DNA of 64,000 nt from Falsochrobactrum shanghaiense (GTDB lineage Bacteria; Pseudomonadota; Alphaproteobacteria; Rhizobiales; Rhizobiaceae): positions 682,001 through 746,000 of the forward strand of contig NZ_QGDB01000001.1 of the NCBI RefSeq assembly GCF_003149535.1. Direction: 5' to 3'. The position numbers were made by a program, and so were the translations under genes. This document shows positions 1,377-18,045 of this stretch, piece after piece (position 1 is the stretch's first letter; every line of letters begins with the position of its first letter). The notes under the pieces are model-generated. The model did no database searches. It had not been told where the DNA came from and worked only from the letters and a program-made list of their open reading frames with translations.

Positions 1377-1727
1377 TTATGATATACTAATAAAAAGAGA
1401 TTGGCTTCTGCTTTTATTAGGATTGTCGGATCCATCCGGCTCAACAACCTCTATATATATTTCGTAGCCCTGACCCGACTGAAAGTGATTTGCGGTGGCA
1501 AGACTGAAGATTGGCGGGGACGCCAGGCGATCTTTGTAAGAAATAAGTTGCATCGACGCGACAGCGTTGCTATTGATAAATAGTGTAGCATGCTGAGTAG
1601 TTCTAATATGCTCCCATGGATCACAGGTAAATTGAATTGTATTACCAATATCTGAAATATTAATATGTCCATTATCTATGTGGTTTTGTATTATAAACGG
1701 AGTTATTTGACTTAAATTCTTATTCAT
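1377..1727 (-). CDS. small single-module beta-sandwich protein (116 aa)
   Basis: This short protein is essentially one copy of the module found at the N-terminus of the 357-aa protein downstream. The shared pattern is T-C-x-x-W-[DE]-x-I-R-T-x-Q-x-A-x-L, then PPIFSL, G-x-x-Y-E-I, and a serine-led last strand (SQSLFISIS). No signal peptide is visible. The ATG follows an AGG ribosome binding site and starts 8 bases after the stop of the 519-aa gene, so it is almost certainly in the same transcript. The gene is strongly A+T-rich. It could be a stand-alone subunit or a decayed copy, but the frame is intact and the module is complete. Confidence 0.7.
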   Translation of the reverse strand: MNKNLSQITPFIIQNHIDNGHINISDIGNTIQFTCDPWEHIRTTQHATLFINSNAVASMQLISYKDRLASPPIFSLATANHFQSGQGYEIYIEVVEPDGSDNPNKSRSQSLFISIS

Positions 1728-1735
1728 TGTTTTAC

Positions 1736-3295
1736 CTATATAATTCTGGTTGAAAGAGTGCCCGTAGAAAAACTGCTTGCCGCAATTTCTTTATTCGTAC
1801 CTTTCGGCGTTACAGAATAATACATTTTATACAAATTTTTATACTGACTATTTTTTGGCGTTCCGTATCCGGATATATCACCAAAAGGAATAGTTATATG
1901 GAATTCCGTGTCGGTTGGAGTAATTACTGTTGCTTTGTAATTGTATTTGTTGGATGCAAAATTATCGTCAGCTTTATAGTCGCCCTGGAAGGTGGCGTGC
2001 AGCGTTACAATATCACCGGCTTTCAGGGTATAATTTAAATCTTTCAGGAGAATCTCGGTGTCTATAGCTAAATTTATGGAGGTTATGTAATCATGATCAA
2101 CTCCATTTTTAACTATACTGCCAATGTTAATGACGCCGCCATAGGGATCGGCCATAGGGCCCAGGATTTGATTTTCCGGCTGAGGATCGGGGAGCGGTCC
2201 AAAAATCGGTATAATACTTGTCAGCGATTTTATAATATCCCCTGTATGGGTCCTGAAATAGTATAAATAGTTATTAGTTTTTACATGAGGGTTGTCATTA
2301 ACGATAAGATCATCAATATTGGCGTCTACTTTAATATAATTGGTGTCTTGATTAAGATTATCAAACTCCGCTTGATTCTGGAATTTATCATTGAGGAAAA
2401 GACCAATGAATTCTTCGTTCGTGATGTTGTTGTTTTCAACCGTCACCGGAAACGTAGTTTTATCGTAATTGGGCAACAATCTGGCAATGTTCGTCTTCGG
2501 AGGATCAAATTCGTATCCTGCCAGCTTTTCGTAAACATAAACGAAGCAACCATCTAGAGAATACCCCCCTGATGTAACTGTTATCTGTACATAGCCGGCA
2601 TTGCTGTTGGAGCCTATATATAATGTTGCAACGCCATTTGTATCTGTTGGTAATGTAACCGTTGAGTCATTTGAATTATTACGATTTGGAGTCAAATTTA
2701 GCGCTATCGGAGCTTTGTTTCCATTATAGAAAGCCCCTGTCTGGCTTGTAGGCTGGGTTCTAACATTTTTTATTGTAAATGATACGGGATATTCGGTCAC
2801 AGTATTCTTGTCAGAATCGAAGACTGTTACGTCTATTTGAGTAACAAGTGTCGGAGAATCGTCAGGTTTGCCAGGGACTGGTGATACCAGCAATGCTGGA
2901 GCAGGTTGCTTGGTGATGTAGGGAATTGCAGTTACCGGCTCAACGGTAAAAGTTATTCCTGTACTGGGCCAGGTAGTGGAGTCTCCTGTCTTGGAGCCGC
3001 TAACGCTACACCTACCATAAGTCTTGGCGACAACCATCATGCAGGCAGTATATTTATTCGGATCTTTCGGGTCCTGGGTTATCGGTACGGTGTAGTTAAA
3101 GCCGGGAGCGGGAGAAATATTTCCATATTTTTTAGGTGAGAAACTAAATGTGTAAGTGTCAACTCCGGGAGTTGGTCGGTCATTATCGTTACCGGAGTAT
3201 ATCAAAGTCGCACTTATTCTCGTCTGTCTTGTCGGGTTGGTTAAGGAGTCGGTGTAGACGATTGAAATATCATCAATATTTGCTTTAGTACCCAT
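1736..3295 (-). CDS. Ig-like domain protein with C-terminal AGD-type module (519 aa)
   Basis: This is the first gene of the minus-strand operon; its ATG follows an AAGGA site 7 bases upstream. The middle part (about 140 to 260) reads like a Big-1-type Ig domain, with TQIDVTVFDSDKN, YPVSFTI, a long loop, then LPTDTNGVATLYIGSNS. The last 130 residues carry a different module: LKAGDIVTLHATFQG, a T-D-x-x-F-H-I-T-I-P strand, and LYKMYYSV followed by a serine-rich end strand. That arrangement recurs at the N-terminus of the 362-aa protein at 6943-8031. No signal peptide, lipobox or membrane segment is seen, which is odd for Ig-like proteins and implies either an unknown export route or an intracellular scaffold role. 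Only 44 bases separate it from the divergent autotransporter. Confidence 0.7.
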   Translation of the reverse strand: MGTKANIDDISIVYTDSLTNPTRQTRISATLIYSGNDNDRPTPGVDTYTFSFSPKKYGNISPAPGFNYTVPITQDPKDPNKYTACMMVVAKTYGRCSVSGSKTGDSTTWPSTGITFTVEPVTAIPYITKQPAPALLVSPVPGKPDDSPTLVTQIDVTVFDSDKNTVTEYPVSFTIKNVRTQPTSQTGAFYNGNKAPIALNLTPNRNNSNDSTVTLPTDTNGVATLYIGSNSNAGYVQITVTSGGYSLDGCFVYVYEKLAGYEFDPPKTNIARLLPNYDKTTFPVTVENNNITNEEFIGLFLNDKFQNQAEFDNLNQDTNYIKVDANIDDLIVNDNPHVKTNNYLYYFRTHTGDIIKSLTSIIPIFGPLPDPQPENQILGPMADPYGGVINIGSIVKNGVDHDYITSINLAIDTEILLKDLNYTLKAGDIVTLHATFQGDYKADDNFASNKYNYKATVITPTDTEFHITIPFGDISGYGTPKNSQYKNLYKMYYSVTPKGTNKEIAASSFSTGTLSTRII

Positions 3296-3339
3296 TATAA
3301 AATCCTTATTTATATTCTATATTTTAGAAAGGCTATACT

Positions 3340-6300
3340 ATGTTAACTCATAGGCAATGGAAGCTGATATTATTGACGGGAACATGCATTGTTTATTGGA
3401 ATTCAGCATATGCGCAGACAAAATATGGCGATGGCGGCGGCATCGGGGGCTATGCGGCCGGTGGTGAGGCTGTTGGCGGAAAAGGGGGTGGAGTTACAAC
3501 CACAGGAGGGGAGGGCGGCGGCGCGTTGGGCGCCGGTCCCGTTGCCCCTGCTGTGGAACACAATGGCGGACATGGTGCCCCGGGAAATGGCGGCGCAGCC
3601 ACGCAAGCAGCGGGGGGCATCTTCGGCGGTATTATCAACAGTTCGACAGATCCAATATCCACGGCAGACAATGTGGACGGAGGAGATGGGTCTGCTACTG
3701 AAGAAGCAGGCGGCGGCGGCGGAGCTGTGCGCGCTGTTATCAATGCAGCAAATTACACGATTGACGAGGGTGTTTTGATCCAGGGAGGGATTGGCGGACA
3801 GACGAGTTTAAGCCAGACCAATCCGGCCCCCAGGGGAAGCGGAGGCGGGGGAATCGGGCTCATTCTCAATGGCGAAGTACTTACGGTTCGGGGGCGTGTC
3901 TATGGAGGGGCGTCAGTGTCTAATGCGCACCCAGGTCCCGGCGCGGCCCCGAGTGAGTTTACGGGCGGAGGCGGATTGGGAATATTGTTGAATTCGGGAA
4001 GACTGGATGTCTATGGGACGGTCCAGGGGGGCACTCCCGACGCGCCGTTGAAAGGCGGAGATTATACAGACGGGCAGGTACCGGAAGGCTCTCCAGGCGG
4101 TGGCGTTTATATGAAGTCCAACACCACGCTTAATGTTTTGCATGGAGGGGCAGTAGGTACTGGTGGACAAATTCATACCAAGCAAAAACTTCCTCCAGCT
4201 GTTATATTACATGGAGACAACAGTACGATTAGCAATGAAGGTACTATTTATAAAGCTATACCGGCCCAGGATGAATTCTTTCAGCACGAAGAATATATTG
4301 TTCCAGCCATATATGTGTTGGGTAATGGAAATAAAATTATCAATAAACACACAATTCAGGGAAATGGCACTGTAACAGAGAATGGATTTGTTTCCACATC
4401 GGAAGCAATAGAATTTGAGGGCAATAACAATATTCTGGAACTTTGGGGCGGGCAGAATATGCGGGGTGTTGCCCGCGTCACGAGCGGTTCCGATAACCAT
4501 CTAATTCTTGCAGGAGAAACATCCGATACATTCAACTTTGGCCTGCTGGATGGCATTGCTACCGTACCTGAAAGCCGGAAGCTGGGAGGTTATGTCGGGT
4601 TTGCCGATTTCACGAAAAACGGGACGAGCACCTGGTCGGGTGGAGGAATATCCAAGGCGACCGGCCCGTGGATGATTAACGAAGGCACCCTGGCATTGAC
4701 GGGCGATGGCAGTCTGGCATCTCATCAAAGCGTGACGGTGGATGCGACGCTCGATATTTCCGGCATCGATGATACCACTACGATGAAGAATGTTTCCGGC
4801 AATGCCAATGGCCGCATCATTCTGGGGGGCAAGGCGCTGGCCTTGCAGGCTGATACGCCGCAGACTTTTGCCGGTATCGCCTCTGGTGACGGCGGAGGCG
4901 TTAATATTCTCAGCGGCACGCAAATTTTTACCGGCAACAATATATATACGGGTACGACAGGCATCGCTGCCGGAGCGAAGCTGCAATTGGGTGATGGCGG
5001 CACCTCCGGCACCGTCGCCGGGACCGTCGCTGTTGACGGCACGCTTTCTTTTGACCGTTCCGATATATGGTCCTTTGGCGCCACGCTGCAAGGACCGGGC
5101 ATGATCGCCCAGAACGGTTCCGGAAAAACCCGGCTTAATGGAAATGGCAGCGGCTTTACCGGTATTGCCGCCATCAATAAAGGCGGGCTTATTGTTAACG
5201 GTACATTGGGGGGGTCTGTCGATCTGCAAGCCGGCAGGCTGGAGGGAACCGGTACTGTGGGATCCGTCACCAGCACAGCCCACGGCACCATCGCTCCCGG
5301 AGATGGCGGTCTGGGCACATTGACAATCAAGGGCAACTATACTGTCAGCGGCGGTATTGTCGAGATAGCCTCGGCACTGGCCGCCGACAATTCGCCGACC
5401 AGCCGGCTGGCCGTCACCGGGAATACGTCCGGGACCGGCAAGGTTCATGTTACCAACCGTGGCGGCGTCGGCGCACAGACCGCTGCGGGAATTGAGATCA
5501 TCAGCGTCGGTGGACAATCGAATGCAGTGTTCGCGCTCCAGTCAGACTTTACCACCAAGGATGGACGGCCTGCGATAGTCGCAGGCGCTTATTCTTACAG
5601 TCTTTACAAGGGGCAGCCGACGCAGGCCGACGGCAACTGGTATTTGCGTTCAGAACTGACCAACCAACCAAATCCGCCTACGCCGCCAACACCACCAACT
5701 CCACCAGTTCCGCCTGCTCCGCAGCCGCATTACAACCCCGCTACGCCGGTCTATGAAGGGGCTGCACAGAGCATGAAACTGTTGAACCGTCTGCCAAGCT
5801 TGCAGCAGCGTGTTGGTAATCGCCACTGGGGTGGTGCCGCCAACCGGGCCATGGTGCAAGGCGATGGGCCAGGATGGATGGAGGGCGCTCCTTCACCCGA
5901 TCTGGGGGCGGCGATCGACAGCAACGGCATCTGGGCACGGATCGAGGGCGGGTATAGCCATCTTCGTCCGCAAAGCTCGACGACCAACATGCGTCAGAAT
6001 ATCGATACGGCACTGTTTCAGGCGGGTATTGACGGCCTGTTCCATGAGGGCGAAAACGGGAGGCTCATTGGCGGCATGAGCGGTCATTACGGCAAGGCAA
6101 ATTCCGATGTCGTCTCGCCGCATGGTGACGGCAAGACAGATATAGAGGCCTGGGGGCTGGGTGCCACACTAACCTGGTATGGCGAGAGCGGAATCTATCT
6201 TGACGGTCAGGCGCATGTGAACTGGTTCCGGTCCGATTATCATTCCACCACCGCCAACCGGGAACTTGCCTCCGGGCAAGACGCCTTCGGCTATGCGATC

Positions 6301-6759
6301 AGCGTTGAGACAGGGCAGCGTATCGTCTTTGATCCGTATTGGTCCGTGACGCCGCAGGCGCAACTGCTCTGGTCTTCAATCGATGCGGAGAGTTTCCGTG
6401 ACACATGGGACACGACAGTGCGCATGAAAGATGGCAACAGCCTGACCGGGCGTCTCGGGGCCTCCCTCGATTACCGAAATTCCTGGTACAGCAATGAGGG
6501 ACAGCTGTCCCGGGTCAGTGCCTATGCCATAGCCAATGTTTATCAGGATTTTCTACGCGGTACTTCGGTGCATGTGGCCGATACCCGTTTCCGGACCCAG
6601 CAGGATCGCACGTGGGCGGGGCTTGGGCTGGGAGGCACCTATGCGTGGAACGACGATAAATATGCCGTTTATGGTGAGGGCGCCGTCAATACCTCCCTCA
6701 ATAACTTCGCAAAAAGCTATGACCTTAAAGGCACGATCGGTTTCCGTGTCAAATGGTAG
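3340..6759 (+). CDS. classical (type Va) autotransporter, pertactin-like, 1139 aa
   Basis: The protein starts with a Sec signal peptide (about residues 1-25, cleavage after NSAYA). A glycine-rich stretch follows (27 to about 190), then a long repetitive passenger with beta-helix character containing the PATR-like phrase NGTSTWSGGGIS and repeated G-T-L/N-x-G-x-L rungs. Near residue 777 there is a proline-rich linker (PPTPPTPPVPPAP). From about residue 850 comes an autotransporter beta-barrel (GIWARIEGGYSH onward) ending in GFRVKW with a terminal aromatic residue, as expected for BAM recognition. It resembles Brucella monomeric autotransporters (Bma/Oma group) in layout, but I cannot assign an orthologue. 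The upstream AAAGG site supports the ATG at 3340. The gene is divergent from the Ig-like operon and is followed by a strong hairpin. Confidence 0.93.
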   Translation: MLTHRQWKLILLTGTCIVYWNSAYAQTKYGDGGGIGGYAAGGEAVGGKGGGVTTTGGEGGGALGAGPVAPAVEHNGGHGAPGNGGAATQAAGGIFGGIINSSTDPISTADNVDGGDGSATEEAGGGGGAVRAVINAANYTIDEGVLIQGGIGGQTSLSQTNPAPRGSGGGGIGLILNGEVLTVRGRVYGGASVSNAHPGPGAAPSEFTGGGGLGILLNSGRLDVYGTVQGGTPDAPLKGGDYTDGQVPEGSPGGGVYMKSNTTLNVLHGGAVGTGGQIHTKQKLPPAVILHGDNSTISNEGTIYKAIPAQDEFFQHEEYIVPAIYVLGNGNKIINKHTIQGNGTVTENGFVSTSEAIEFEGNNNILELWGGQNMRGVARVTSGSDNHLILAGETSDTFNFGLLDGIATVPESRKLGGYVGFADFTKNGTSTWSGGGISKATGPWMINEGTLALTGDGSLASHQSVTVDATLDISGIDDTTTMKNVSGNANGRIILGGKALALQADTPQTFAGIASGDGGGVNILSGTQIFTGNNIYTGTTGIAAGAKLQLGDGGTSGTVAGTVAVDGTLSFDRSDIWSFGATLQGPGMIAQNGSGKTRLNGNGSGFTGIAAINKGGLIVNGTLGGSVDLQAGRLEGTGTVGSVTSTAHGTIAPGDGGLGTLTIKGNYTVSGGIVEIASALAADNSPTSRLAVTGNTSGTGKVHVTNRGGVGAQTAAGIEIISVGGQSNAVFALQSDFTTKDGRPAIVAGAYSYSLYKGQPTQADGNWYLRSELTNQPNPPTPPTPPTPPVPPAPQPHYNPATPVYEGAAQSMKLLNRLPSLQQRVGNRHWGGAANRAMVQGDGPGWMEGAPSPDLGAAIDSNGIWARIEGGYSHLRPQSSTTNMRQNIDTALFQAGIDGLFHEGENGRLIGGMSGHYGKANSDVVSPHGDGKTDIEAWGLGATLTWYGESGIYLDGQAHVNWFRSDYHSTTANRELASGQDAFGYAISVETGQRIVFDPYWSVTPQAQLLWSSIDAESFRDTWDTTVRMKDGNSLTGRLGASLDYRNSWYSNEGQLSRVSAYAIANVYQDFLRGTSVHVADTRFRTQQDRTWAGLGLGGTYAWNDDKYAVYGEGAVNTSLNNFAKSYDLKGTIGFRVKW

Positions 6760-6784
6760 CCTGTGCACAAAAGCGATGAAAACA

Positions 6785-6806
6785 GAAAGGCCCGAACGGG
6801 CCTTTC
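6785..6806 (+). terminator. intrinsic terminator-like hairpin after the autotransporter
   Basis: A 10-bp perfect inverted repeat (GAAAGGCCCG with CGGGCCTTTC, nearly no loop) starts 26 bases after the autotransporter stop. The T-rich 3' arm acts as the U-run. It is nearly symmetrical, so it may also end transcripts coming from the opposite, convergent cassette. Confidence 0.75.
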
Positions 6807-6942
6807 ATTATCCTGAGCACGCTTTGGACCAGTCAGACCCGAAACTTACGCTAAATAGCCATTTTGCACTTCGGAAATGACAGGTTTGTTCGTTTAATAT
6901 TTTTAATATAAGATATATATAGTATTAATATTGTATAACTTA

Positions 6943-8031
6943 TTAATCACTCTTAAAATTATCTATATTTAATATAAAACTATTAGTTAAAAGGTTAATA
7001 TTTTTCTTTATAATTGCTACAGAGAAAGCTGTATTATTAAAATAATTTATGTTAATTTTATTAAGATGCGTATATGGAATTACTATATCTCTACCAATTA
7101 TGTTATCGCTTATAGGAAATAATGTTGCTTTCATCATATTCTTATTAAAAAGACCTACCCTAATAATATCTCCGGATTCCATTGCTTCATGGTGCTCTAC
7201 TATTATGTCTAGTTTTCCTTCCACTATATTCAAGGCGTTACATGAAAATGCATATGACATTTTAGCGGGGCTGATTTGCAGGGAAGCTGGAATCTTTATC
7301 TTGGCTACAGGTGTTGAATGAATAGCCACAGAATTACTGTCCTGTGATATTGCAATGATCCATACATTGACATCTTCGCCAGCGTGGCGATACAATTTCA
7401 TTGAATCCACCAAGAATATAAGATTATCATATGCTTCTAAAGTGGAAAAATGATCGTAATATAAATAATTATTGTTAGTATCTGTAATTAATAAGTATGC
7501 TTCGGAAATATCTTTATAAATAGTGCTATCGTTATTTGAGGCAAATACAGTCCTACTTTTTCCTAAGCAATCGTCAGTCAATTCATCGAGGAAAATGTTT
7601 TCATAAATACTAACGATATTAAGCTCATTATTATATTGATCTGCTACACGAATGATTGAATTTTGAGACATATTATCATCAGAATAGCTGTCATTATTAT
7701 TTACATTGTATGTTATCGGAATCTTGTTTCCGGGTTTAATACTTTCTGCAGGGATAGAATCCGAAGTTAAAAGAACGACGATTTGATCGTTTACATCAGA
7801 AGAAGTGACTTCATAGGCACTTGTAACCCCTGCTGCAATATTAAGATTGATGGTGTCGCCAGCTGCCATATTCGGATAAGGCGGTATGATTACAAATACG
7901 CGAAAGTCGTCCTGAGCTTCCGCAATATAAGGTGGAAATATGCTGGGGGGGACCAGATCGGGGTTGGGTTTTACATTTGTGTTAATGGTGGAATATTCTC
8001 TATTGATGCTGGCGGTAAAATTGATTTTCAT
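6943..8031 (-). CDS. hypothetical beta-sandwich protein, third gene of the lodAB-like cassette (362 aa)
   Basis: The frame overlaps the end of the lodB-like gene by 32 bases and has its own GGAGAG site just upstream of ATG 8031, so translation is probably coupled. Residues about 45-130 carry the module NMAAGDTINLNIAAG, then S-D-V-N-D-Q-I-V-V-L, then I-P-I-T-Y-N-V and a serine-led strand. This matches the C-terminal module of the 519-aa protein on the other side of the autotransporter. A second, more diverged copy seems to lie near 250-350 (ESGDIIRVGLF, then DIVIPY). The protein has no signal peptide. It is very A+T-rich, in contrast to the lodA-like gene. Function unknown; its position suggests it works with the quinoprotein. 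Confidence 0.72.
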   Translation of the reverse strand: MKINFTASINREYSTINTNVKPNPDLVPPSIFPPYIAEAQDDFRVFVIIPPYPNMAAGDTINLNIAAGVTSAYEVTSSDVNDQIVVLLTSDSIPAESIKPGNKIPITYNVNNNDSYSDDNMSQNSIIRVADQYNNELNIVSIYENIFLDELTDDCLGKSRTVFASNNDSTIYKDISEAYLLITDTNNNYLYYDHFSTLEAYDNLIFLVDSMKLYRHAGEDVNVWIIAISQDSNSVAIHSTPVAKIKIPASLQISPAKMSYAFSCNALNIVEGKLDIIVEHHEAMESGDIIRVGLFNKNMMKATLFPISDNIIGRDIVIPYTHLNKININYFNNTAFSVAIIKKNINLLTNSFILNIDNFKSD

Positions 8032-9082
8032 TTTTCTCTCTCCAAAATAAACTTTGCCATCTTTTTTCTAAACTATAAATTGAATTTATATCTTGAGTAT
8101 AATTTGCCCTTTTTATTTCTATGTCTCGCTTTAGATTATCCAGTTCTCGAAAATCACCTGTAAAGGCTTTCAAGAGGGCTCTTGCACCAAATATTCCATG
8201 GGCCAAGGCATTCAGAATGCCGTGAGCTGATAGAGGCTCGAAGGTCATTGCCGCATCTCCGACGGCCAGCCAATCCTTGCCAGCGGTGGTTGCCAGCATC
8301 GAACCGCAGGCATTCATTCCCCGCAAACGCGACCATGATGCATCGAAACTGCAATGCCTGCGCAAATGCAGTGTTTTTTGCATGGCATTTGCGAAAAGAT
8401 GCTCGTTGTGAACCAGACGTTTCGCGTTGGCAGGCGTTGTATGAAAGGCAACTACGCGGCGGTTGCCGGGCAGCGCTGCCGTATACCACCAGCCTTCGGG
8501 GACAGCTTCGATCAGGGTGCGGCTTTCAGGCGAGCGATTTGGCCCCCAGCTAAACACCGCAACCAAGGGGCTGTCTGCAACACGTTTGATTCCCAAAGAT
8601 CGGGAGACCATACTTTGTCGGCCACTGGCATCGACGATCCACCGGGAATAGAACGCCTTGTCTGTGAGTTGTACTTTCCAGCCCGAATTCTCATTTCGGC
8701 GAGCATTCCTGACCTGTCCAACAAGAACATCTGCTCCTGTCGAGCGAACTGCCGCCTGCAAACATCGATCAAAGGCATTACGGTCCAGATGCCATCCGCT
8801 GCCGAACCTGTCGAGAATGAAATCTTTCTCGATCAGCCTTTCGCTCCCCCATGAAAACACATCGCCAATATACTCCAATGGTTGACTTTTCCGTGCCCAG
8901 TCGAAAAGACCGCTTCGTTTCAGCAGATGGATTCCTTGCCCGGACAGGCATTCTCCGATTTTCTGCTTCGTGCCTGGCGGCTGCCGATCAATGACCAGGA
9001 CGCGCAATCCGGCCCGGGCGAGGGTGAAGCCGGCGGAGGAGCCTGCTACCCCGCCGCCAATGATGATGCAATCGTAGCTCAT
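8000..9082 (-). CDS. LodB-like FAD-dependent tryptophan-modifying flavoprotein (360 aa)
   Basis: The N-terminus has a Rossmann FAD-binding motif (IIIGGGVAGSSAGFTLARAG). A DASG segment and the motif GDAAMTFEPLSAHGI are typical of the p-hydroxybenzoate-hydroxylase/tryptophan-halogenase-like flavoprotein fold. LodB-family enzymes are known to be required for making the cysteine tryptophylquinone (CTQ) cofactor of their LodA partner. Here the ATG at 9082 overlaps the TGA of the LodA-like gene as ATGA, which is strong context support for that role. Length is near the family norm. The specific LodB assignment rests on context plus fold, since many flavoprotein monooxygenases share these motifs. Confidence 0.85.
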   Translation of the reverse strand: MSYDCIIIGGGVAGSSAGFTLARAGLRVLVIDRQPPGTKQKIGECLSGQGIHLLKRSGLFDWARKSQPLEYIGDVFSWGSERLIEKDFILDRFGSGWHLDRNAFDRCLQAAVRSTGADVLVGQVRNARRNENSGWKVQLTDKAFYSRWIVDASGRQSMVSRSLGIKRVADSPLVAVFSWGPNRSPESRTLIEAVPEGWWYTAALPGNRRVVAFHTTPANAKRLVHNEHLFANAMQKTLHLRRHCSFDASWSRLRGMNACGSMLATTAGKDWLAVGDAAMTFEPLSAHGILNALAHGIFGARALLKAFTGDFRELDNLKRDIEIKRANYTQDINSIYSLEKRWQSLFWREKNENQFYRQHQ

Positions 9083-12000
9083 GGCTTTTTATCAATGCAC
9101 TCGACATAGATTTTCCCGGGAATTCCCGCCAGATCCGTCGGTCCACCGGCCTGCAGAACGGTCCCCAGCTTTTCATAGTGCTGGATCATAAACTGAGCCT
9201 GTTTCTCCTCTTCCACCGTATCGCGGGAATCAGGATTGTCCGACATGTTGCGCCACCAGTTATCCCGCGTTTCGAAAGCAGTAAGCCGATCCGACTTAGA
9301 TTGACTGCTGTCTTTGACCTTATTGAAATTGGCTTGTGTCAGAACCTGGTTCGGCACGCGTGCCGGCCAGTATGCAGGCGTGTAGGCACCGTATCCGCCA
9401 TCGTGGTTAGCATCGTATCCGCCGCGGCAGCGCGCCGTATCGCCATGCCATGGCAGAGCCATCCAACGGGTCAGCCCGCCGGCGGGTTGGGCACCCAGCC
9501 CCTTGTCTGGAATATGCGCATCCGTGTGACCGAATGTTTCGCCCTGTGCGGGGATATATACCCCATCCGCACCAGCTTCACGAATTCTGAAGGGGGCGCG
9601 ATAAAGGCCCAGATGACGCATTGGCCAGGTGACTTCGCAACCGGGATGGAAAGCGTCTGCAAGGCAGAAATGCAGTGCGGCCTTATCCAGCAGTGCAGGT
9701 TGCTCGGCCAGTGGCGCCTCATCGATCGTGGCATAGTCTGGCGGCAATGTATCGCTATCATCGACGAAATCACCCTCCAGCCACCGTTTGAACCAGGAGT
9801 AGCGGATATAGGAGAGAGCCGTCATGTCATCGGGACTATCGACATTCAGAAACGGCTTCGTGTCATCCTGGATGTCGACCGGATCTTCGCCAAAGGAATC
9901 TCCGTAAAGCAACGGCCATTTCGTCGGGTCACATTTGGGAGCAGACGGATCCTGCAAATGGTCGAATACATATTGACGGCTTGCCTTGTTTGGATCGTCG
10001 CCATGATCAGGGGCTGTACTCAACCTCTTCAGCTTCTCGATATTGAAAAAGTCGCCAGGCTTGCCGGGGCCAAACAAATCGTGAAAACCTTTGTTGACCC
10101 ATGATGTTTGCGACAGACGTTGTAAAGTCGGCAAGATATGTTTGCTGAACAATATTTTTTCAGGCGCGGGGAGCATGCCGGCTTCCATATAGAGCTCTTC
10201 CAGCCGCTCATACAGCGTCGTTATGCCGATCATGTCTGGTGCAAAATTTGGTGGGGCAACAATGACCCAGGCGGAATCGACGTCGAAGGATTTTCCGTTG
10301 ATCGTCACCTCGGCATGAACAGGGCCATCAGAAATATCATCATACCATTGATTGGAATTGTTGAAATTTCCGGTATTCCCCAAGAGCACGTTATGATCGG
10401 GGTCATTGGCATCTGCGGTCGTGCCGGCGGTTCCGGCTCCGCCCAACACAATGAGCCTGCCTTTCATATCTGTACGCAACTCACCCAGCGTCACTTCTAT
10501 CGAGCGGAACTTTCCCTTGATCGGTGCAGATCGGGTATGGGTGCCGGATATGCTCATCGTATCTGGCGTAATGGCCAGGGATGCCCGGTCAGAATTCTCG
10601 GAGTTTCTCAATATCGAGGGCTGATTTTCCTCACTCCGGAAGAAATCCTTATCCCATGCATGATCGAATCGGAACCATTGCGCTTTTCTATTGGCAAGCG
10701 TTACTTTCCAATTGATGGTCGTGCCCGCATCTTCCGGTAGAATTTCTTTGACGACTTGCCCCTGGGCATTATAACCATAAATTCGAAAACGCGCACCTTG
10801 CCGCTTTATCTTGCCTGTACTGTCCCGAACCGTTTCATATTGCATCGGTTGTGGCGTGTCGGTCTCCGGGCCAATATAAATATCGGCATATTCGTCGTTG
10901 CCGGTAATCCATTCGCTGCCCGTCAATTCACTGTTGCCGACACGTGCAACACCGATGCCGGGGTGAATAGCAATGCGGACAATCTCGGTCTCTTGTGATG
11001 GAGTTGGTTTCACTGCAACCTGCGACCACGGAATATCCTTTTCCGGTTCGTCATATGCTGCACTGTTGAAGGCGGGCGGACGTGGAGAATTTGGCTCCCC
11101 AACAGGTTGGCCGTTCAGATCGCGGCGGGCTTTGGCGGCAAGATCGTAAGAGATTCTTCGAGCAAAGGCGATCTCTCCATAAGGCATATTGTCGGCGAGA
11201 GTTCGCCATGGATTGAAAGAGAGGGCTTCCACATAGTCATCCTGCCCCCTTTGCGTAATATCCTGCTGCGCAATTTCCAGAGTAGCAATTTTAAATATAT
11301 TGTCGATGTCATTGGTGCCAAACGGCGCGACATCCGGATCGTCGCTATTGTCTTTCTCCCAATTATCCGAAGCGCTGTCTACCGACTGGTACGGGGACGT
11401 CTTGAGATGCATATAGAAGTCGAACTTATAAGCAGCTTTATTCAAATTTGCTGCGAGGTCTTTGCGCAGAAAGACCGGGTCCGATTTATCCGCTTCGGGC
11501 AGAGTTTCCTGATCCGGAGCAGGGGTCACAATATATTTACAAAACTGAAGAAGATTTTGGCTCCCATCTTTCGGCGCTCCGAGAATGAAGGGCACACAAC
11601 TCCAATAGGTCTCTTTCAGGACGCTGGATGGGTCGCTCGCGATCATAGCGTTAATGATTGAAGACAGCTCTTTATTTTCCGGACGGTTTCTGAAATCAGC
11701 CAGAGTGCCATCATATTTTGCTGTCAGATAGGCTGCCATTTGCTTTGCGTCCCGAGCAAAGAAAACAGGATAGTTCTGCAAGGCAAAATCGACGGTCGTA
11801 AACTGGCTGGCGCTGTCCTGCGTGGCGGGATAATCGAGTATATTAACGCCAGGGACATTGAATAGTTTTATGCTGCAGCCGACCGTAGAATGGCGGTCGG
11901 CTTTATCAATATTGATGTCACCGCCGAAGCGAACCCAGGCATCATGGCTGCCTTCATTGGCAAATATGCCCTGTTTCAATATGGATGCTTTGTCGGATTT

Positions 12001-12210
12001 GTTTATTTCACTGTGCGTTACCGTAAACTTCGCGCTGGCTCCCCCATGTGTCTTGATAAAAGCGGCGCGCCGTCCGGGGACTTGTCCAGATTCGAAGTTT
12101 TTATACTGTTTTTTATAAAGAAAGCCGTCGATGATTTTTTTAAGGTCATCCTTGAGGCTGTCGCTCATACTATATGTGTGATCATTATAATTATAAGTAT
12201 ATCTCAGCAT
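9079..12210 (-). CDS. catalase-like domain fused to LodA-like CTQ quinoprotein oxidase (1043 aa)
   Basis: Residues about 40-380 resemble the heme catalase fold: KFTVT after the KTHGG turn, NYPVFFARD at 146-154 (matching the distal Asn region NTPVFFIRD), and RRISY at 351-355, where Tyr355 with Arg at -4 matches the proximal heme ligand motif R-x-x-x-Y. The position expected for the distal His appears to be Phe51, with His55 close by. Residues about 405-1043 are LodA-like: IAIHPGIGVARVGNS (413-427), AFHPGCEVTW with Cys858, and LTRWMALPW with Trp921. The Cys858-Trp921 spacing of 63 is close to that of the CTQ pair in LodA (516/581). LodA oxidises free lysine and GoxA glycine, releasing H2O2. Stand-alone LodA proteins are about 700 aa, so the extra heme-type half is unusual. 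No signal peptide. A second possible start is Met15; neither start has a good ribosome binding site. Confidence 0.88.
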   Translation of the reverse strand: MLRYTYNYNDHTYSMSDSLKDDLKKIIDGFLYKKQYKNFESGQVPGRRAAFIKTHGGASAKFTVTHSEINKSDKASILKQGIFANEGSHDAWVRFGGDINIDKADRHSTVGCSIKLFNVPGVNILDYPATQDSASQFTTVDFALQNYPVFFARDAKQMAAYLTAKYDGTLADFRNRPENKELSSIINAMIASDPSSVLKETYWSCVPFILGAPKDGSQNLLQFCKYIVTPAPDQETLPEADKSDPVFLRKDLAANLNKAAYKFDFYMHLKTSPYQSVDSASDNWEKDNSDDPDVAPFGTNDIDNIFKIATLEIAQQDITQRGQDDYVEALSFNPWRTLADNMPYGEIAFARRISYDLAAKARRDLNGQPVGEPNSPRPPAFNSAAYDEPEKDIPWSQVAVKPTPSQETEIVRIAIHPGIGVARVGNSELTGSEWITGNDEYADIYIGPETDTPQPMQYETVRDSTGKIKRQGARFRIYGYNAQGQVVKEILPEDAGTTINWKVTLANRKAQWFRFDHAWDKDFFRSEENQPSILRNSENSDRASLAITPDTMSISGTHTRSAPIKGKFRSIEVTLGELRTDMKGRLIVLGGAGTAGTTADANDPDHNVLLGNTGNFNNSNQWYDDISDGPVHAEVTINGKSFDVDSAWVIVAPPNFAPDMIGITTLYERLEELYMEAGMLPAPEKILFSKHILPTLQRLSQTSWVNKGFHDLFGPGKPGDFFNIEKLKRLSTAPDHGDDPNKASRQYVFDHLQDPSAPKCDPTKWPLLYGDSFGEDPVDIQDDTKPFLNVDSPDDMTALSYIRYSWFKRWLEGDFVDDSDTLPPDYATIDEAPLAEQPALLDKAALHFCLADAFHPGCEVTWPMRHLGLYRAPFRIREAGADGVYIPAQGETFGHTDAHIPDKGLGAQPAGGLTRWMALPWHGDTARCRGGYDANHDGGYGAYTPAYWPARVPNQVLTQANFNKVKDSSQSKSDRLTAFETRDNWWRNMSDNPDSRDTVEEEKQAQFMIQHYEKLGTVLQAGGPTDLAGIPGKIYVECIDKKP

Positions 12211-12540
12211 AATTATTACTCATTATGTGTTGAAATTACACAATTTAATAATAATTTATGCTTCCATTTGATACTGTTTATAATGTCAGGGAATGCGGGA
12301 AAAGTTTATTGAGCTAATCAATGCGAGTTTATCTGAAAGAATTATCCAGATTCTGGGTATAGTCGTCACGGTCGAGAGGCGTTTTGCCATAGCGAAGACA
12401 TTCGTTCGAGCGGGGCCGAACGCCTTTCGATATTCCACGATTGCAACAAGGGTATCGGCCGCTTGATCCGTCCGGTGGACATTGCCCTTTCAGTTCATCG
12501 CCAGGCACGGCTCTTACGAACGGAATGTCAGCCCGCCAGC
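12211..12540. other. intergenic segment spanning the apparent island boundary
   Basis: About 330 bases with no convincing gene. The part next to the LodA-like start (12211 to about 12340) is strongly A+T-rich and should hold that cassette's promoter. From about 12360 the composition switches to the G+C-rich character of the core genome. I see no tRNA, integrase or clear direct repeat at the junction, so the mechanism of acquisition is not shown by the sequence. Confidence 0.5.
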
Positions 12541-13335
12541 CTATTCGATCAACAACGCATCGTCATCGAGCGTCTGGCCGCGCACCTTGCGGAACATTTC
12601 GATCAGGTCTTCGACGCCGAGCGTCTTGCGCTTGTCGCCAGTGACATCGAGCAGGATATTGCCGCCATGCAGCATGATGGTGCGGTCGCCATAATCGAGC
12701 GCCTGCCGCATGGAATGGGTGACCATCAAAGCGGTCAGCTTGTTTTCCGCGATCAGGTTGCGGGTCAGTTCCATGACGAATTCCGCCATGCCGGGATCAA
12801 GAGCCGCCGTATGCTCGTCGAGCAGCAGCACCTCCGAACCAGCCAGCGTGGCCATGACGAGCGAAAGCGCCTGACGCTGGCCGCCGGATAAAAGCTCCAT
12901 GCGGTCCTGCATGCGGTTTTCAAGGCCGAGATTGAGGCTTGCGACGCGTTCGCGGAACAATTCGCGCCGGGCAGGCGCAAGGGCTGCGCCAAGGCCGCGC
13001 CTTTTGCCGCGTGCTGCGGCAAGCGCGAGATTTTCCTCGATGGTCAGCGTTCCGCAGCTTCCGGCCAGCGGATCCTGAAATACGCGGGCAACAAGCCCTG
13101 CGCGTTCGGCGGTAGGTTTGCGGGTCACATCCTTGCCGCTGATCAGAACCTTGCCAGCGGCTGGAATGACATCGCCTGCCAGAACGCTCAGCAGCGTGGA
13201 TTTGCCAGCACCATTGGAGCCGATGACGGTCACGAAGGAACCGCGATCCATCGTCAGATTGATTTTCTTGAGAACCTGCTTTTCCAGCGGCGTTCCGCGA
13301 CCGAAAATAACGTCGAGATTGGATAGTTCGATCAT
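12541..13335 (-). CDS. ABC transporter ATP-binding protein (264 aa)
   Basis: Standard importer ATPase: Walker A GSNGAGKSTLL near residue 39, signature LSGGQRQALSL, Walker B VLLLDEHTAALDP, and a switch His in THSMRQ. It is the last gene of a minus-strand operon (binding protein, FAD oxidase, permease, ATPase) and overlaps the permease stop by 4 bases (ATGA). Together with an ABC_sub_bind-type binding protein and a single LivH-like permease, it belongs to the class of transporters that includes TrpXYZ in Gram-positives. Substrate is not proven; aromatic amino acids or amines are reasonable guesses. Confidence 0.93.
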   Translation of the reverse strand: MIELSNLDVIFGRGTPLEKQVLKKINLTMDRGSFVTVIGSNGAGKSTLLSVLAGDVIPAAGKVLISGKDVTRKPTAERAGLVARVFQDPLAGSCGTLTIEENLALAAARGKRRGLGAALAPARRELFRERVASLNLGLENRMQDRMELLSGGQRQALSLVMATLAGSEVLLLDEHTAALDPGMAEFVMELTRNLIAENKLTALMVTHSMRQALDYGDRTIMLHGGNILLDVTGDKRKTLGVEDLIEMFRKVRGQTLDDDALLIE

Positions 13336-14216
13336 GCCGATGCTCCTCCACGACGCAGGCGCGGCAATATCAGCGCGATGGTGACGAGAAGCGCTGTCGC
13401 GATATTGAGATCGGATGCCTGAAGCCCGACAATATCGCCGTTGGAAAGGGCAAGCTGGATCGCGATGCGATAGATGATCGAGCCCGCCACGCAGCCGATC
13501 AGGATAAGAAGGATGAGGCGAGTGCGCAGCAGCGTTTCGCCGATGATGACCGCAGCAAGGCCGACAACGATGGTGCCGACACCGGACGTCACATCGGCAA
13601 AGCCGTTGGTCTGCGCGAAGAGCGAGCCGCCGAGCGCCACCAGCGCGTTGGAGATCGCCATGCCGAGATAGATCTGCCGATCCGTCTGCACGCCCTGCGC
13701 GCGGGCCATTTTGGGGTTGGCGCCGGTGGCGCGCATGGCAAGGCCCATATCGCTTTCAAGAAAGCGCCAGACGAGGAAGACAGCGACGGCGACCAGCACG
13801 AACAGGAAAGCCGGGCGCACGTAATATTCGGGAATGCCGTGGCCATAGAAAGGCGAAAGCATCGTATCCTGATTGATGAGCGCGATATTGGGTCGGCCCA
13901 TGATGCGCAGATTGACCGAGAAGAGCGCGATCATGGTGAGGATCGAGGCAAGAAGATTGAGTATTTTGAAGCGCACATTGAGCGTTGCGGTCACAAGACC
14001 TGCAAGGGCACCGGCGACCATGGCGATGCCTGCGGCAAGCCATGGATTATAGCCCGCGAGGATCAGGACGCCGGTCACAGCCGCGCCAAGCGGGAAGGAA
14101 CCGTCCACGGTAAGGTCGGGAAAGTCGAGGACGCGGAACGCCAGATAGACGCCGATAGCTACGAATGAAAAGACGAGGCCCAATTCGACCGCACCCCAAA
14201 AGGCGATCTGACTCAC
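13332..14216 (-). CDS. ABC transporter permease, LivH/TrpY-like (294 aa)
   Basis: A hydrophobic protein with about eight membrane-spanning stretches. The early segment FRVLDFPDLTVDGSFPLGAA is typical of the uncharacterised ABC permeases that pair with ABC_sub_bind proteins, and AAVIIGETLL lies where the coupling region is expected. It is followed by its ATPase with a 4-base overlap. It lies 166 bases downstream of the FAD oxidoreductase gene on the same strand. Confidence 0.92.
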   Translation of the reverse strand: MSQIAFWGAVELGLVFSFVAIGVYLAFRVLDFPDLTVDGSFPLGAAVTGVLILAGYNPWLAAGIAMVAGALAGLVTATLNVRFKILNLLASILTMIALFSVNLRIMGRPNIALINQDTMLSPFYGHGIPEYYVRPAFLFVLVAVAVFLVWRFLESDMGLAMRATGANPKMARAQGVQTDRQIYLGMAISNALVALGGSLFAQTNGFADVTSGVGTIVVGLAAVIIGETLLRTRLILLILIGCVAGSIIYRIAIQLALSNGDIVGLQASDLNIATALLVTIALILPRLRRGGASA

Positions 14217-14382
14217 AACGATATTCCTTGTTTTTCGTCGCGTCCGGTTGCGGCGCGCTCAATTTAACGTGACGGAATACAACCCAACTCTTTCCTCACG
14301 CAAGCATTATCGCAAAAAGCCCTGCGATAAAGAGACCCTGTGGAGCGAATACAACAATGCTTTTGCCGGAAATACCATAAGT

Positions 14383-15702
14383 TCAAACCTCGCGGCGGGC
14401 GCGCCACATTTCCCATGCAAAGCGCGAGCGCACGCCAATATCGAGGAATGGACGCGGGGGGAGCCTGACCGGACTGCCCAGCGAATACATATCGGCAATC
14501 AGCGGGTTGTCGATGTTGCAGGCCATGTCCGCGGCCAGCATGCCGCCGATGGTTCCCTTCGCTATCCCGACCCCGTTCTGGCAAAGCGATGTATAGACGT
14601 TCTTCGCCAGGCGGCCAAAGCCCGGCGCGCCATTGCGCGACAGGCAGATATAGCCCGTCCATGTGGATTGCATTTCCACCTGCGGCAACATGGGAAAGCG
14701 CTCATCGAAAAAGCGCTTGTGCTCGCGCTTGATCGCCAGCCTGCGTTCGTCGGACTGGCGCAGGGAAGGGCAGAAATGCACATTCTGCCGCACAAGAATG
14801 CGTCGATCCGGCGTCAGACGCATGGTAATGCCGGAAAATGAATTGGCCGGGGTCACGCCCCATGGCTCGACCTCGCCCAGCGCCCTGTATTCTTCATCCG
14901 TGAGCGGACGGCTGAGACTGGCGTGGGCGGCAAAATTCAGCAGCTTCCTTTTGAAGAAGCCGAATTGCTCGCCAAAGCTGTTGACCGTCAGGATCATCGT
15001 CGGCGCTTCGACCGATCCGCGATCCGTGGTGACCACGATGCGTTTGCCATAATCGACATTGATTGCGGGGGTATTTTCATAGAGCGTGACGTTTTCGGGC
15101 AGGCTGTCGGCAAGTCCGCGCACCAGCGCCGCAGGATTAAGCAGGATCGTGCCGTAAGTATAGATCGCCGCCTTGTAATGGCTCGTGCCCAGCCGCCGGG
15201 CCAGCTCGTCGCTTTCATACCAGTCGAACGGTTCTTCAAGCCGCTCCATTTCCTTGATGGTCGGCTCCAGCACTTCACGGATACCCAGATCGGTGACGGC
15301 GGCGTGAAACTTTCCCTGCCTGCTCCACTGGCAGGCAATGGCATGGCGATCGACCTGTTGGCGGAGGTAATCGATGCCCGCTCGGGCAAGCTTGCGATAG
15401 CCATGCGATTTTGCCAGCTCTTCCAGCGACGCGGTGACATTGTGCGGCAGATCAATGGCAAAGCCTGCATTGCGGCCCGATGTGCCTTCTCCAGCCTGTT
15501 GGGCGTCCAAAAGCACGATATGATCGCCGGGGCGGTTTTCGGCCAGCCGGCGTGCTGCGGCAAGGCCCGCATAGCCCGCGCCGATCACCACCCAGTCGGC
15601 CTTGATATGGGCTGACAGCGCTGGTTTGGGCGTGCGCTGCGGCAGGATATGACTCCAGCCATTGGTGTTGTCGTCTGCGGGCAGAATGCGGATTCTGGTC
15701 AT
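14383..15702 (-). CDS. FAD-dependent amine/amino-acid oxidoreductase, DAO family (439 aa)
   Basis: The N-terminal dinucleotide-binding motif is DWVVIGAGYAGLAAARRLAE (about 36-55), followed by a GRNAGF segment characteristic of gamma-glutamylputrescine-oxidase-like members of the DAO family. The C-terminal part has a YTSLCQNGVGIAKGTIGG segment with the FAD-closing loop. The enzyme should oxidise a primary or secondary amine, or an amino acid, with release of H2O2 or transfer to a quinone. Its location inside an importer operon suggests it acts on the imported compound. A hairpin with a short T-run lies between the binding-protein gene and this one, so it may be expressed less than the binding protein. 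Confidence 0.88.
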   Translation of the reverse strand: MTRIRILPADDNTNGWSHILPQRTPKPALSAHIKADWVVIGAGYAGLAAARRLAENRPGDHIVLLDAQQAGEGTSGRNAGFAIDLPHNVTASLEELAKSHGYRKLARAGIDYLRQQVDRHAIACQWSRQGKFHAAVTDLGIREVLEPTIKEMERLEEPFDWYESDELARRLGTSHYKAAIYTYGTILLNPAALVRGLADSLPENVTLYENTPAINVDYGKRIVVTTDRGSVEAPTMILTVNSFGEQFGFFKRKLLNFAAHASLSRPLTDEEYRALGEVEPWGVTPANSFSGITMRLTPDRRILVRQNVHFCPSLRQSDERRLAIKREHKRFFDERFPMLPQVEMQSTWTGYICLSRNGAPGFGRLAKNVYTSLCQNGVGIAKGTIGGMLAADMACNIDNPLIADMYSLGSPVRLPPRPFLDIGVRSRFAWEMWRARREV

Positions 15703-15718
15703 GCTCGATCTGCTTTGT

Positions 15719-15758
15719 TCAAATTGAAAAGAGCGGGGTCCAAATTGAAAAGGGCGGG
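15719..15758. repeat. two direct copies of an 19-bp sequence
   Basis: The sequence CAAATTGAAAAGAGCGGG at 15720-15737 is repeated as CAAATTGAAAAGGGCGGG at 15741-15758, with one mismatch. The second copy forms one arm of the adjacent hairpin. It looks like a local duplication of the terminator arm and its T-run. Confidence 0.7.
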
Positions 15759-15774
15759 AATTTACCCCCGCCCT
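15751..15774 (-). terminator. attenuator/terminator between binding-protein and oxidase genes
   Basis: Read on the minus strand, an 8-bp perfect stem AGGGCGGG/CCCGCCCT with an 8-base loop is followed directly by TTTTCAATTT. It lies 24 bases after the binding-protein stop and ahead of the oxidase gene. This is a usual way to make the periplasmic binding protein in excess over the downstream genes. Confidence 0.7.
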
Positions 15775-15797
15775 GTCATTTCGATTGCAATCGGCGA

Positions 15798-16751
15798 TCA
15801 GTCGATCTTGCTGGTGGCGCGATCGATGACGGCTTGCGGGAATTCAATTCCCATCTTCCTGGCAGCGCCCAGATTGATGACGAGATCGGTTCCCTTGGCC
15901 ACTTCAACCGGAATATCGCCGGGCTTTTCGCCATTGAGAATTTTGACCACCACGTCGCCGGTCTGCTTGCCGACATCATAATAGTTGAAGCCAAGGGCTG
16001 CGGCTGCGCCGCGCTTGACGGAATCTGTATCTGCGGTGAAGAGCGGCAGCTTGCTTTCCTCGGCAACGCCCACGGCACTTTCAAGCGCGGAAACGATGGT
16101 GTTGTCGGTCGGCACATACATGGCATCCGCACGGCCTACGAGGGCGCGCGCGGCACCCTGAACTTCCGCCGATTTGGTGGCGGCGGATTCGACGATCTCA
16201 ATGCCCTCGGCCGAAGCGGCTTCCTTGAGCGCTGCCAGAAGCGAGACCGAATTGGTTTCACCGGAATTATAGAGATAGCCAAGCTTCTTGATGTCCGGCA
16301 TCACTTCCTTGATGAGCTTGATATGTTCGGCGACCGGCGACATGTCGGAAAGGCCGGTGACATTGCCGCCGGGGTTTTCCATGCTCTTGACGAGTTGCGC
16401 GCCGACCGGATCGGAAACAGCGGTGAAGACGATCGGAATATCGCGGGTGGCGGAAACGACCGCCTGCGCGGAAGGCGTCGAGATCGGCACGATTACGTCC
16501 GGGCTGTCGCCCACGAACTGGCGGGCGATCTGGGCTGCGGTCGCCGGGTTGCCCTGTGCGGACTGATAGACGAATTTCAGGTTTTCACCTTCCTTGAAGC
16601 CAGCCTCGGCCAGCGTATCCTTTACGCCGTCACGCGCTGCATCAAGCGCCGGGTGTTCAACGATGGCTGTAACCATGACGGTTACGTCCTTGGCATGCGC
16701 CGATGTGGCGATGGCCGTTGCGGCCAGCAAGGCCAGAAGCATGGAACGCAT
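15798..16751 (-). CDS. ABC transporter substrate-binding protein (ABC_sub_bind family, 317 aa)
   Basis: I place the start at ATG 16751, which has a GGGGAGA site and begins a clear Sec signal peptide (MRSMLLALLAATAIATSAHA); the 38 residues further upstream in frame are not signal-like. The mature part opens with DVTVMVTAIVEHPALDAARDG and contains FVYQSAQGNPATAAQIARQF and PIVFTAVSDPVGAQLV, all typical of the periplasmic TrpX-like ABC_sub_bind family. It is the first gene of the importer operon. Ligand unknown; family members bind tryptophan or tyrosine. Confidence 0.92.
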   Translation of the reverse strand: MRSMLLALLAATAIATSAHAKDVTVMVTAIVEHPALDAARDGVKDTLAEAGFKEGENLKFVYQSAQGNPATAAQIARQFVGDSPDVIVPISTPSAQAVVSATRDIPIVFTAVSDPVGAQLVKSMENPGGNVTGLSDMSPVAEHIKLIKEVMPDIKKLGYLYNSGETNSVSLLAALKEAASAEGIEIVESAATKSAEVQGAARALVGRADAMYVPTDNTIVSALESAVGVAEESKLPLFTADTDSVKRGAAAALGFNYYDVGKQTGDVVVKILNGEKPGDIPVEVAKGTDLVINLGAARKMGIEFPQAVIDRATSKID

Positions 16752-17018
16752 GAAGATCTCCCCTGTTTTGATGCGTCTGTCGTCGGCATATCCCCATATC
16801 CAATAAGCCGGAGCCAAGGTTATCCGCCTGTTTCGAGGCTTAATCTTGTCCGGATAGGCTGTCAACGTGTCGCGTTCGTCCCCCCAATCCCTTGCCAGCG
16901 AAAAACCTTGCCCGGTTGCATTCGATGAACAGAGTGTTCAGCGCACTTTCAAACCCTTTCCTGTGCCGCCATATTCTGCGAGAACGCCTCTACAGGCCCA
17001 TATTCAAGGAACTTCACC

Positions 17019-18041: not shown

Positions 18042-18045
18042 CGGT

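What the first reader, a model, noticed from the sequence alone, without database searches (positions are those of the whole stretch)
9079..12210. A catalase-like domain fused to a LodA-like quinoprotein oxidase in one chain
Seen directly: one uninterrupted 1043-codon frame with catalase-fold landmarks in the first ~380 residues (NYPVFFARD, RRISY) and LodA landmarks in the last ~640 (IHPGIGVARVGN, AFHPGC, LTRWMALPW). Known: LodA/GoxA enzymes oxidise amino acids through a CTQ cofactor and release H2O2, giving antimicrobial activity in Marinomonas; the described enzymes are stand-alone. Inference: the fusion couples H2O2 production to an H2O2-using heme site, either for self-protection or for a peroxygenase-type second reaction on a substrate.
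Basis: partly seen in the sequence, partly recalled or inferred. Interest (0 to 1): 0.85.

Follow-up and report, generated by a model that had tools for sequence, protein, structure and literature searches.

The report
Catalase-fold and LodA quinone oxidase fusion
One long bacterial protein joins a catalase-shaped domain to an amino-acid oxidase; such fusions were catalogued in 2015, but the catalase half appears to lack the key residue that makes a catalase, so it probably does something other than destroy hydrogen peroxide.

Summary
A 1043-aa frame (window 9079-12210, minus strand) joins a catalase-fold domain (residues ~34-376) to a LodA/GoxA-type CTQ oxidase (~408-1037), followed by a LodB/GoxB-like maturase gene overlapping by 4 nt. 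The fusion is not new: Campillo-Brocal et al. 2015 (PMC4417212, Table 3) list 21 such fusions, all in their uncharacterised group III.

What I did not find in print is the state of the heme site. The proximal Arg-x-x-x-Tyr, the aligned arginines and the distal Asn are kept, but the place of the distal His that catalases need holds Phe in 59 rows of a 90-row tree, all LodA-linked (52 fused, 7 separate genes), and His in the other 31, which include 7 separate second copies near Acinetobacter fusions. In a separate draw of 398 genomes, 3 of 49 strong matches have Phe: the window itself, one other fusion and one LodA neighbour. Catalase self-protection is therefore unlikely. I favour a heme domain that uses the oxidase's H2O2 in a second oxidation; a non-catalytic module is the main rival. 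The domain was gained or lost repeatedly, once as an in-frame difference between Agrobacterium vitis strains. No structure model was obtained; the mechanism is inferred.

The parts
9079..12210 (-). Fused gene, 1043 aa: catalase-fold (CAT) domain + LodA-type CTQ oxidase (LOD) domain
11083..12111 (-). CAT domain, residues 34-376 (catalase-related)
   Evidence: (in-session profile hit 9e-102)
12058..12060 (-). F51, aligned with the distal His (H99) of the same genome's true catalase
11917..11919 (-). D98: Asp in 56 of 56 distinct Phe-type rows, 0 of 31 His-type rows
11773..11778 (-). Q145-N146; N146 aligns with the catalase distal Asn; Q145 is Gln in 56 of 56 Phe-type and 0 of 31 His-type rows
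11146..11160 (-). R351-x-x-x-Y355, aligned with the proximal Arg and heme-ligand Tyr of catalase
9100..10989 (-). LOD domain, residues 408-1037 (LodA_N + LodA_C)
9427..9429 (-). C928, aligned with LodA C516 (CTQ cysteine)
   Evidence: alignment, text, (31 of 31)
9367..9369 (-). W948, aligned with a Trp of the GoxA CTQ region (CTQ tryptophan candidate; which GoxA Trp forms CTQ is recalled)
   Evidence: alignment, (31 of 31)
8000..9082 (-). LodB/GoxB-like flavoprotein maturase gene, 360 aa, 4-nt overlap with the fused gene
   Evidence: maturase_GoxB 9.3e-63, LodB 1.8e-55; both below the equivalog cut-offs

Best explanation
A two-site enzyme in one chain. SHOWN by sequence: the C-terminal half is a LodA-family oxidase with the CTQ Cys and Trp and a maturase gene beside it; the N-terminal half is a catalase-fold domain that keeps the residues that hold heme in catalases (proximal Arg/Tyr, aligned arginines, distal Asn) but has Phe where catalase has its acid-base His, together with changes specific to LodA-linked copies (D98, Q145 and others). 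INFERRED: the oxidase half oxidises a primary amine or amino acid through CTQ and releases H2O2 next door; the heme half binds b-type heme through Tyr but, lacking the His, does not dismutate the H2O2. Instead it uses it (or an O2/peroxide adduct) to oxidise a substrate, perhaps the oxidase's own product, whose own polar group would supply the missing acid-base function.
For: F51 aligns with the distal His of the organism's own catalase; R48, R94, N146, R351, Y355 and R362 align with identical catalase residues. In 56 distinct Phe-type rows R48, F51, R94, D98, Q145, N146, R351, Y355 and R362 are each 56 of 56: the site is constrained, not decaying. Phe/His changes once on the tree; all 59 Phe rows are LodA-linked (52 fused, 7 separate genes), and none of the 21 genomes that gave the 24 unlinked His rows has a LodA_N match. 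Separate draw: 3 Phe of 49 strong matches, all LodA-linked (the window itself, a fusion in G551, a separate gene in G690), while of the genomes of the other 46 only G565 has LodA_N, on another contig. The coupling survives splitting: separate CAT gene within the locus in L088, L096, L099, L102, L108 and G690. The two halves co-diverge (52 loci, r = 0.91, 0 of 2000 permutations as high). CAT is absent near many LOD relatives (11 changes on the LOD tree) and in frame in one A. vitis strain, so it is an extra step rather than part of making the oxidase.
Against: No heme binding, peroxide use or substrate is shown. No structure model was obtained, so 'F51 faces the heme' rests on alignment alone. 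The Phe-LodA association is one change on the tree, so the perfect match counts once. Distal-His loss also occurs without linked LodA: Asn 3 and Gln 1 among the 49 strong matches, and in a far branch Phe in 5 and Gly in 3 of 19 matches read, three of the five Phe genomes having no LodA_N. In the window itself the distal Ser is also lost (G96; Ser in 49 of 56), which could mean a weaker site.
Confidence: 0.42

Rival explanations
1. The CAT domain is a non-catalytic module: it binds heme (or only keeps the fold) to stabilise, localise or regulate the oxidase, for example as a peroxide or gas sensor.
For: Loss of the catalytic His, and of the distal Ser in the window; repeated absence of CAT among LodA relatives, including in-frame absence in A. 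vitis CG78 with oxidase and maturase frames intact.
Against: Distal-side positions D98, Q145 and N146 are each 56 of 56 in distinct Phe-type rows, more than a pure scaffold would seem to need; the CAT can be a separate gene and still accompany the oxidase; repeated absence argues against a need for it in oxidase folding.
Confidence: 0.28
2. Self-protection: the CAT domain is a working catalase that removes the H2O2 made by the oxidase.
For: Catalase fold and proximal heme site; in 8 of 9 Acinetobacter loci a separate His-type CAT gene lies about 0.1-0.8 kb downstream of the maturase gene, so peroxide handling may belong to the neighbourhood.
Against: The distal His, called essential in monofunctional catalases (PMC9687031, passages), is Phe in every fused or split LodA-linked CAT row but the Acinetobacter second copies. 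Those copies suggest that peroxide removal, if any, sits in the separate His-type protein. The genome has its own catalase.
Confidence: 0.12
3. The heme acts directly on a nitrogenous product (imine, oxime or hydroxylamine bound to iron), or relays electrons from CTQ, rather than using H2O2.
For: Heme enzymes that activate an organic substrate directly exist (aldoxime dehydratase, PMC5391958, seen only in a search listing with the start of its abstract); a hydrophobic distal pocket would suit such binding (inference).
Against: No sequence feature points to it. Tyr-ligated catalase hemes have very low potential (recalled), which makes electron acceptance from CTQ unlikely.
Confidence: 0.1

Closest known systems
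LodA-like group III proteins with a pfam00199/cd08152 domain (Campillo-Brocal et al. 2015, PMC4417212)
   Same: Catalase-related domain in the N-terminal region of a LodA-like protein, size range 963-1072 aa in Table 3, lodB neighbours; two Table 3 genomes (Acinetobacter gyllenbergii MTCC 11365, Massilia timonae CCUG 45783) are among my relatives, as L120 and L070.
   Different: The parts of the paper that I read (passages and sections 7 and 11) report the domain but not the state of the heme site; 'distal' and 'proximal' do not occur in its main text. The window protein is a divergent branch: 62% to Ochrobactrum sp. CM-21-5, 36-43% to the 29 other fusions aligned.
LodA (L-lysine 6-oxidase, PDB 2ymw/3weu) and GoxA (glycine oxidase, PDB 6byw and others)
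   Same: Oxidase half, CTQ Cys and Trp positions, D924 aligned with an Asp (recalled as active-site), flavoprotein maturase.
   Different: Far below NCBIfam equivalog cut-offs (309.9 of 750 for GoxA, 162.3 of 600 for LodA), so the substrate cannot be carried over; the LodA and GoxA matches lie within residues 412-971 of the query, that is the oxidase half.
Stand-alone catalase-like (y4iL-type) proteins and the catalase-related chain PDB 3e4w
   Same: Catalase fold, proximal Arg/Tyr.
   Different: The His-type rows keep the distal His (31 of 31) and have neither Q145 nor D98 (0 of 31 each). The distal residue of 3e4w was not read: its alignment starts after that place.
Catalase-fold enzymes with other chemistry: allene oxide synthase (1u5u), EasC (9jdb)
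   Same: Same fold by profile (5.5e-6 and 8.5e-6); precedent that a catalase fold can do oxidative chemistry other than H2O2 dismutation (recalled).
   Different: Not linked to a quinone oxidase as far as recalled; the heme-pocket residues of these two were not compared here.

Membership tests
LodA-like CTQ oxidase family | LodA_N and LodA_C domains | tested here: met
   219.4 and 113.9 bits, cut-offs 26.3 and 25
LodA-like CTQ oxidase family | Cys and Trp that form CTQ | tested here: met
   C928 and W948 by alignment; 31 of 31 fusions
LodA-like CTQ oxidase family | LodB/GoxB-type maturase gene next to it | tested here: met
   8000-9082 minus
LodA-like CTQ oxidase family | CTQ present and amine oxidase activity | not testable with these tools
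   needs purified protein
LodA (lysine 6-oxidase) or GoxA (glycine oxidase) equivalog | NCBIfam equivalog cut-off | tested here: not met
   162.3 of 600 and 309.9 of 750 bits
Group III catalase-domain fusions (2015) | N-terminal catalase-related domain + LodA + lodB, akin to listed members | tested here: met
   in one family with L120 and L070, from genomes in Table 3; the paper's own group tree was not rebuilt
Catalase fold (PF00199 superfamily) | Profile similarity to solved catalases | tested here: met
   the window sequence alone misses PF00199
Monofunctional heme catalase | Distal His | tested here: not met
   F51
Monofunctional heme catalase | Distal Asn and Ser | tested here: inconclusive
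   N146 kept; Ser is Gly in the window, but Ser in 49 of 56 distinct Phe-type rows
Monofunctional heme catalase | Proximal Tyr/Arg and propionate arginines | tested here: met
   R351, Y355, R48, R94, R362; which Arg does what is recalled from catalase structures
Heme peroxygenase | H2O2-driven oxygenation at heme | not testable with these tools
   experiment needed; no structure model

The most novel reading that the evidence does not exclude
LodA-linked catalase-fold domains are a distinct heme-enzyme class: catalase redesigned once (distal His to Phe, with Gln and Asp added) into a peroxide-using oxygenase that is fed H2O2 by a CTQ oxidase in the same chain or operon, giving a self-fuelled tandem that oxidises an amine twice.
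Probability: 0.3. Interest if true: 0.75.

Novelty: new member of a known kind. Interest (0 to 1): 0.42.

Why it matters
The architecture is known, but the 2015 survey left every group III member uncharacterised, and my searches found no later study. Showing that the heme half keeps its heme-binding residues while the catalase His is Phe in every fused copy whose distal column was read turns a vague 'oxidase plus catalase' label into a testable claim: the pair should consume peroxide without releasing O2. If so, it would be a natural self-supplied peroxide enzyme, of use in biocatalysis and in understanding why bacteria keep these quinone oxidases. If not, it is a clear case of a catalase fold kept as a non-catalytic module.

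Tried and rejected
Self-protection by catalase: lowered by the distal Phe. 'Fusion is new': rejected by PMC4417212 Table 3. Chance or assembly fusion: rejected by recurrence in named genomes. A conserved further partner: ORFs of the 80 loci and of part of the window were clustered. Eight clusters without CAT/LOD/maturase reach 4 or more loci: five are confined to Acinetobacter, one (7 loci, including the window's ABC-transporter ATPase) lies at varying places, and two (4 loci each) look like antisense or chance ORFs (judged by eye from coordinates, not scanned). A link with surface adhesins was considered (autotransporter in the window, Ig-repeat protein in A. vitis, usher in Acinetobacter), but other neighbours scanned are a sensor kinase, a diguanylate cyclase, a tRNA synthetase, CobN and so on. 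'Distal Phe occurs only with LodA' is too strong: see the far branch. Fold prediction: the first job was interrupted and the tool then switched off, so heme-pocket geometry and the distance between the two sites were not examined.

Row handling: 101 CAT rows were aligned; the trees used 90 CAT rows and 86 LOD rows, both by the quick method, leaving out duplicates, frameshifted pieces and short rows; searches used 56 Phe and 31 His distinct rows. The genome-contig scan kept the best 80 of 99 confirmed relatives, and one of its two patterns contained QN, so it favours Q145; the draw does not use it, but it includes the window's own genome. That draw gave 49 matches of 176 bits or more, all read (two of them by eye), and 21 of about 42-64 bits, 19 read (by eye) and 2 not fetched. 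In the first search of the class only two candidates a genome were scored, so absence of LodA_N was checked again in 65 genomes.
Full report
OBSERVATION. The frame is real: window 9079-12210, minus strand, 1043 aa. Pfam places LodA_N at residues 416-651 (7.2e-65) and LodA_C at 791-933 (6.9e-33). The first 400 residues give no Pfam hit on their own, and a single-sequence search of solved structures gives only marginal hits (3e4w 0.026, catalases from 0.17). With 22 relatives the profile finds 3e4w at 1.2e-15, catalase 6rjr at 5.8e-13 and further catalases, and also allene oxide synthase and EasC at 5.5e-6 and 8.5e-6; 16 of the 22 rows hit PF00199 individually, not the window row. So 'catalase-like' is right.

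SURROUNDINGS. The next gene, 8000-9082 minus, overlaps by 4 nt and is a LodB/GoxB-like flavoprotein (9.3e-63 to maturase_GoxB, 1.8e-55 to LodB, both below the equivalog cut-offs). A third gene, 6943-8031 minus, overlaps the maturase gene by 32 nt and has no Pfam or NCBIfam match; among the ORFs of 150 aa or more in the loci held only the window's own copy matched it. Window 1000-12500 has G+C of 0.35-0.60 per kb (0.49-0.57 over the fused gene), against 0.54-0.62 from 12501 to 24000, which suggests acquired DNA. The genome holds one LodA_N match and one PF00199 match, a true catalase elsewhere.

KNOWN OR NEW. Campillo-Brocal et al. 2015 (PMC4417212; passages and sections 7 and 11 read) list 21 LodA-like proteins with a pfam00199/cd08152 domain, all in group III, of which the paper says that no protein is characterised. 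In the plasmid collection 5 of the 7 records with 80% or more of the protein covered carry exactly the name 'LodA/GoxA family CTQ-dependent oxidase'. Searches for later work on the fusion or on its heme site (open-licence papers only; listings, with passages of PMC4699246) found nothing more. The architecture is therefore known; the function is open.

RELATIVES. One scan of genome contigs gave 80 loci (best 80 of 99). In 50 the two domains share a frame, in 5 the CAT domain is a separate gene in the locus (L088, L096, L099, L102, L108), and in 25 no CAT lies in the fetched stretch; a maturase-like ORF is in 75 of 80. Those with CAT come from Pseudomonadota, Cyanobacteriota, Myxococcota, Acidobacteriota, Actinomycetota, Planctomycetota and Bdellovibrionota. 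The nearest is Ochrobactrum sp. CM-21-5 (62%). In both the CAT tree (98*) and the LOD tree (96*) the window and this row form a long-branch pair beside separate genes of Arsenophonus nasoniae and Enterobacterales CwR94; for the LOD tree the tool warns that long branches meet there. Both trees are of the quick method.

THE HEME SITE. Aligned with the organism's own catalase, window R48, R94, N146, R351, Y355 and R362 match R96, R135, N172, R377, Y381 and R388, but F51 stands opposite the distal His (H99) and G96 opposite the distal Ser (S137). A review of monofunctional catalases calls this His essential (PMC9687031, passages). On a 90-row tree built without that column, Phe and His are separated by a single change: 59 Phe rows (52 fused, 7 separate but in a LodA locus) and 31 His rows (24 without LodA in the stretch, 7 second copies in Acinetobacter loci). 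None of the 21 genomes behind those 24 rows has a LodA_N match. In 56 distinct Phe rows F51, D98, Q145 and N146 are invariant; D98 and Q145 occur in 0 of 31 His rows, N146 in 22 of 31. A separate draw of 398 genomes gave 49 strong matches: Phe 3, His 42, Asn 3, Gln 1. The three Phe domains are the window itself, a fusion in G551 and a LOD-maturase-CAT gene row in G690; of the genomes of the other 46 only G565 has LodA_N, on another contig than its His-type CAT. This is one evolutionary change, so the perfect association is not many independent tests. Far relatives (about 42-64 bits) include 5 Phe and 3 Gly among 19 read; three of the five Phe genomes have no LodA_N and two have it on another contig. 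Loss of the His is thus not unique to LodA linkage.

THE OXIDASE SITE. C928 aligns with LodA C516, named in PMC4417212 as a CTQ residue; W948 aligns with a Trp of the GoxA CTQ region; both, and D924, are 31 of 31 in the aligned fusions.

COUPLING AND DISPENSABILITY. The halves co-diverge (52 loci, r = 0.91; 0 of 2000 permutations as high). On the 86-row LOD tree presence of CAT changes 11 times, at least 9 forced by starred branches. Agrobacterium vitis CG78 (L085) and CG118 (L095) share the locus (94% identity over 7.8 kb on one side, 91% over 5.5 kb on the other), yet CG78 lacks the CAT domain in frame while oxidase and maturase frames are intact. CAT is thus coupled to the oxidase but not needed for keeping it.

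MECHANISM. Shown: domains, cofactor-site residues, distal Phe, linkage. Inferred: H2O2 from the CTQ site is used at the heme for a second oxidation (0.42). The invariant distal-side residues favour a working site over decay; the missing His argues against catalase. The rivals are a non-catalytic module (0.28), catalase self-protection (0.12) and direct heme chemistry on a nitrogenous product or electron relay (0.10). No structure model was obtained.

VERDICT. A real, previously catalogued but uncharacterised kind of protein, with a heme-site feature that I did not find described and that changes the likely function. Interest 0.42.

Noticed in passing
window 1000-12500: Mostly lower-G+C stretch that holds the fused operon, the orphan gene and an autotransporter gene; looks like acquired DNA.
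   Followed up: partly
window 3340-6759 (+): 1139-aa autotransporter (Autotransporter beta-domain 4.3e-36, autochaperone domain 4.1e-19).
   Followed up: no
window 6943-8031 (-): Orphan 362-aa gene, G+C about 0.35, overlaps the maturase gene by 32 nt; no Pfam or NCBIfam match and no relative among the ORFs of the fetched loci.
   Followed up: partly
L052-L055, L063, L071, L084, L120 (Acinetobacter): 8 of 9 Acinetobacter loci carry a second, separate CAT gene with the distal His downstream of the maturase gene.
   Followed up: partly
L085 compared with L095 (Agrobacterium vitis): In-frame absence of the whole CAT domain in one strain at a syntenic locus.
   Followed up: yes
L108 (Enterobacterales CwR94): Three Phe-type CAT genes around one LOD and maturase pair, with a chitinase-like gene between.
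   Followed up: no
L071, L076, L125: Fused genes whose reading frame is interrupted; may be decay or sequencing error.
   Followed up: no
L169, L191, L192, L200, L208: A far catalase-like branch in one genus (code g324) that also has Phe at the distal place; three of the five genomes have no LodA_N match.
   Followed up: partly
L177, L183, L184, L186: Stand-alone catalase-like genes with Gln (1) or Asn (3) at the distal place, in genomes without LodA_N.
   Followed up: no
G376 (L027, L041, L043-L045): One genome of the window's family gives five matches to stand-alone catalase-like genes.
   Followed up: no
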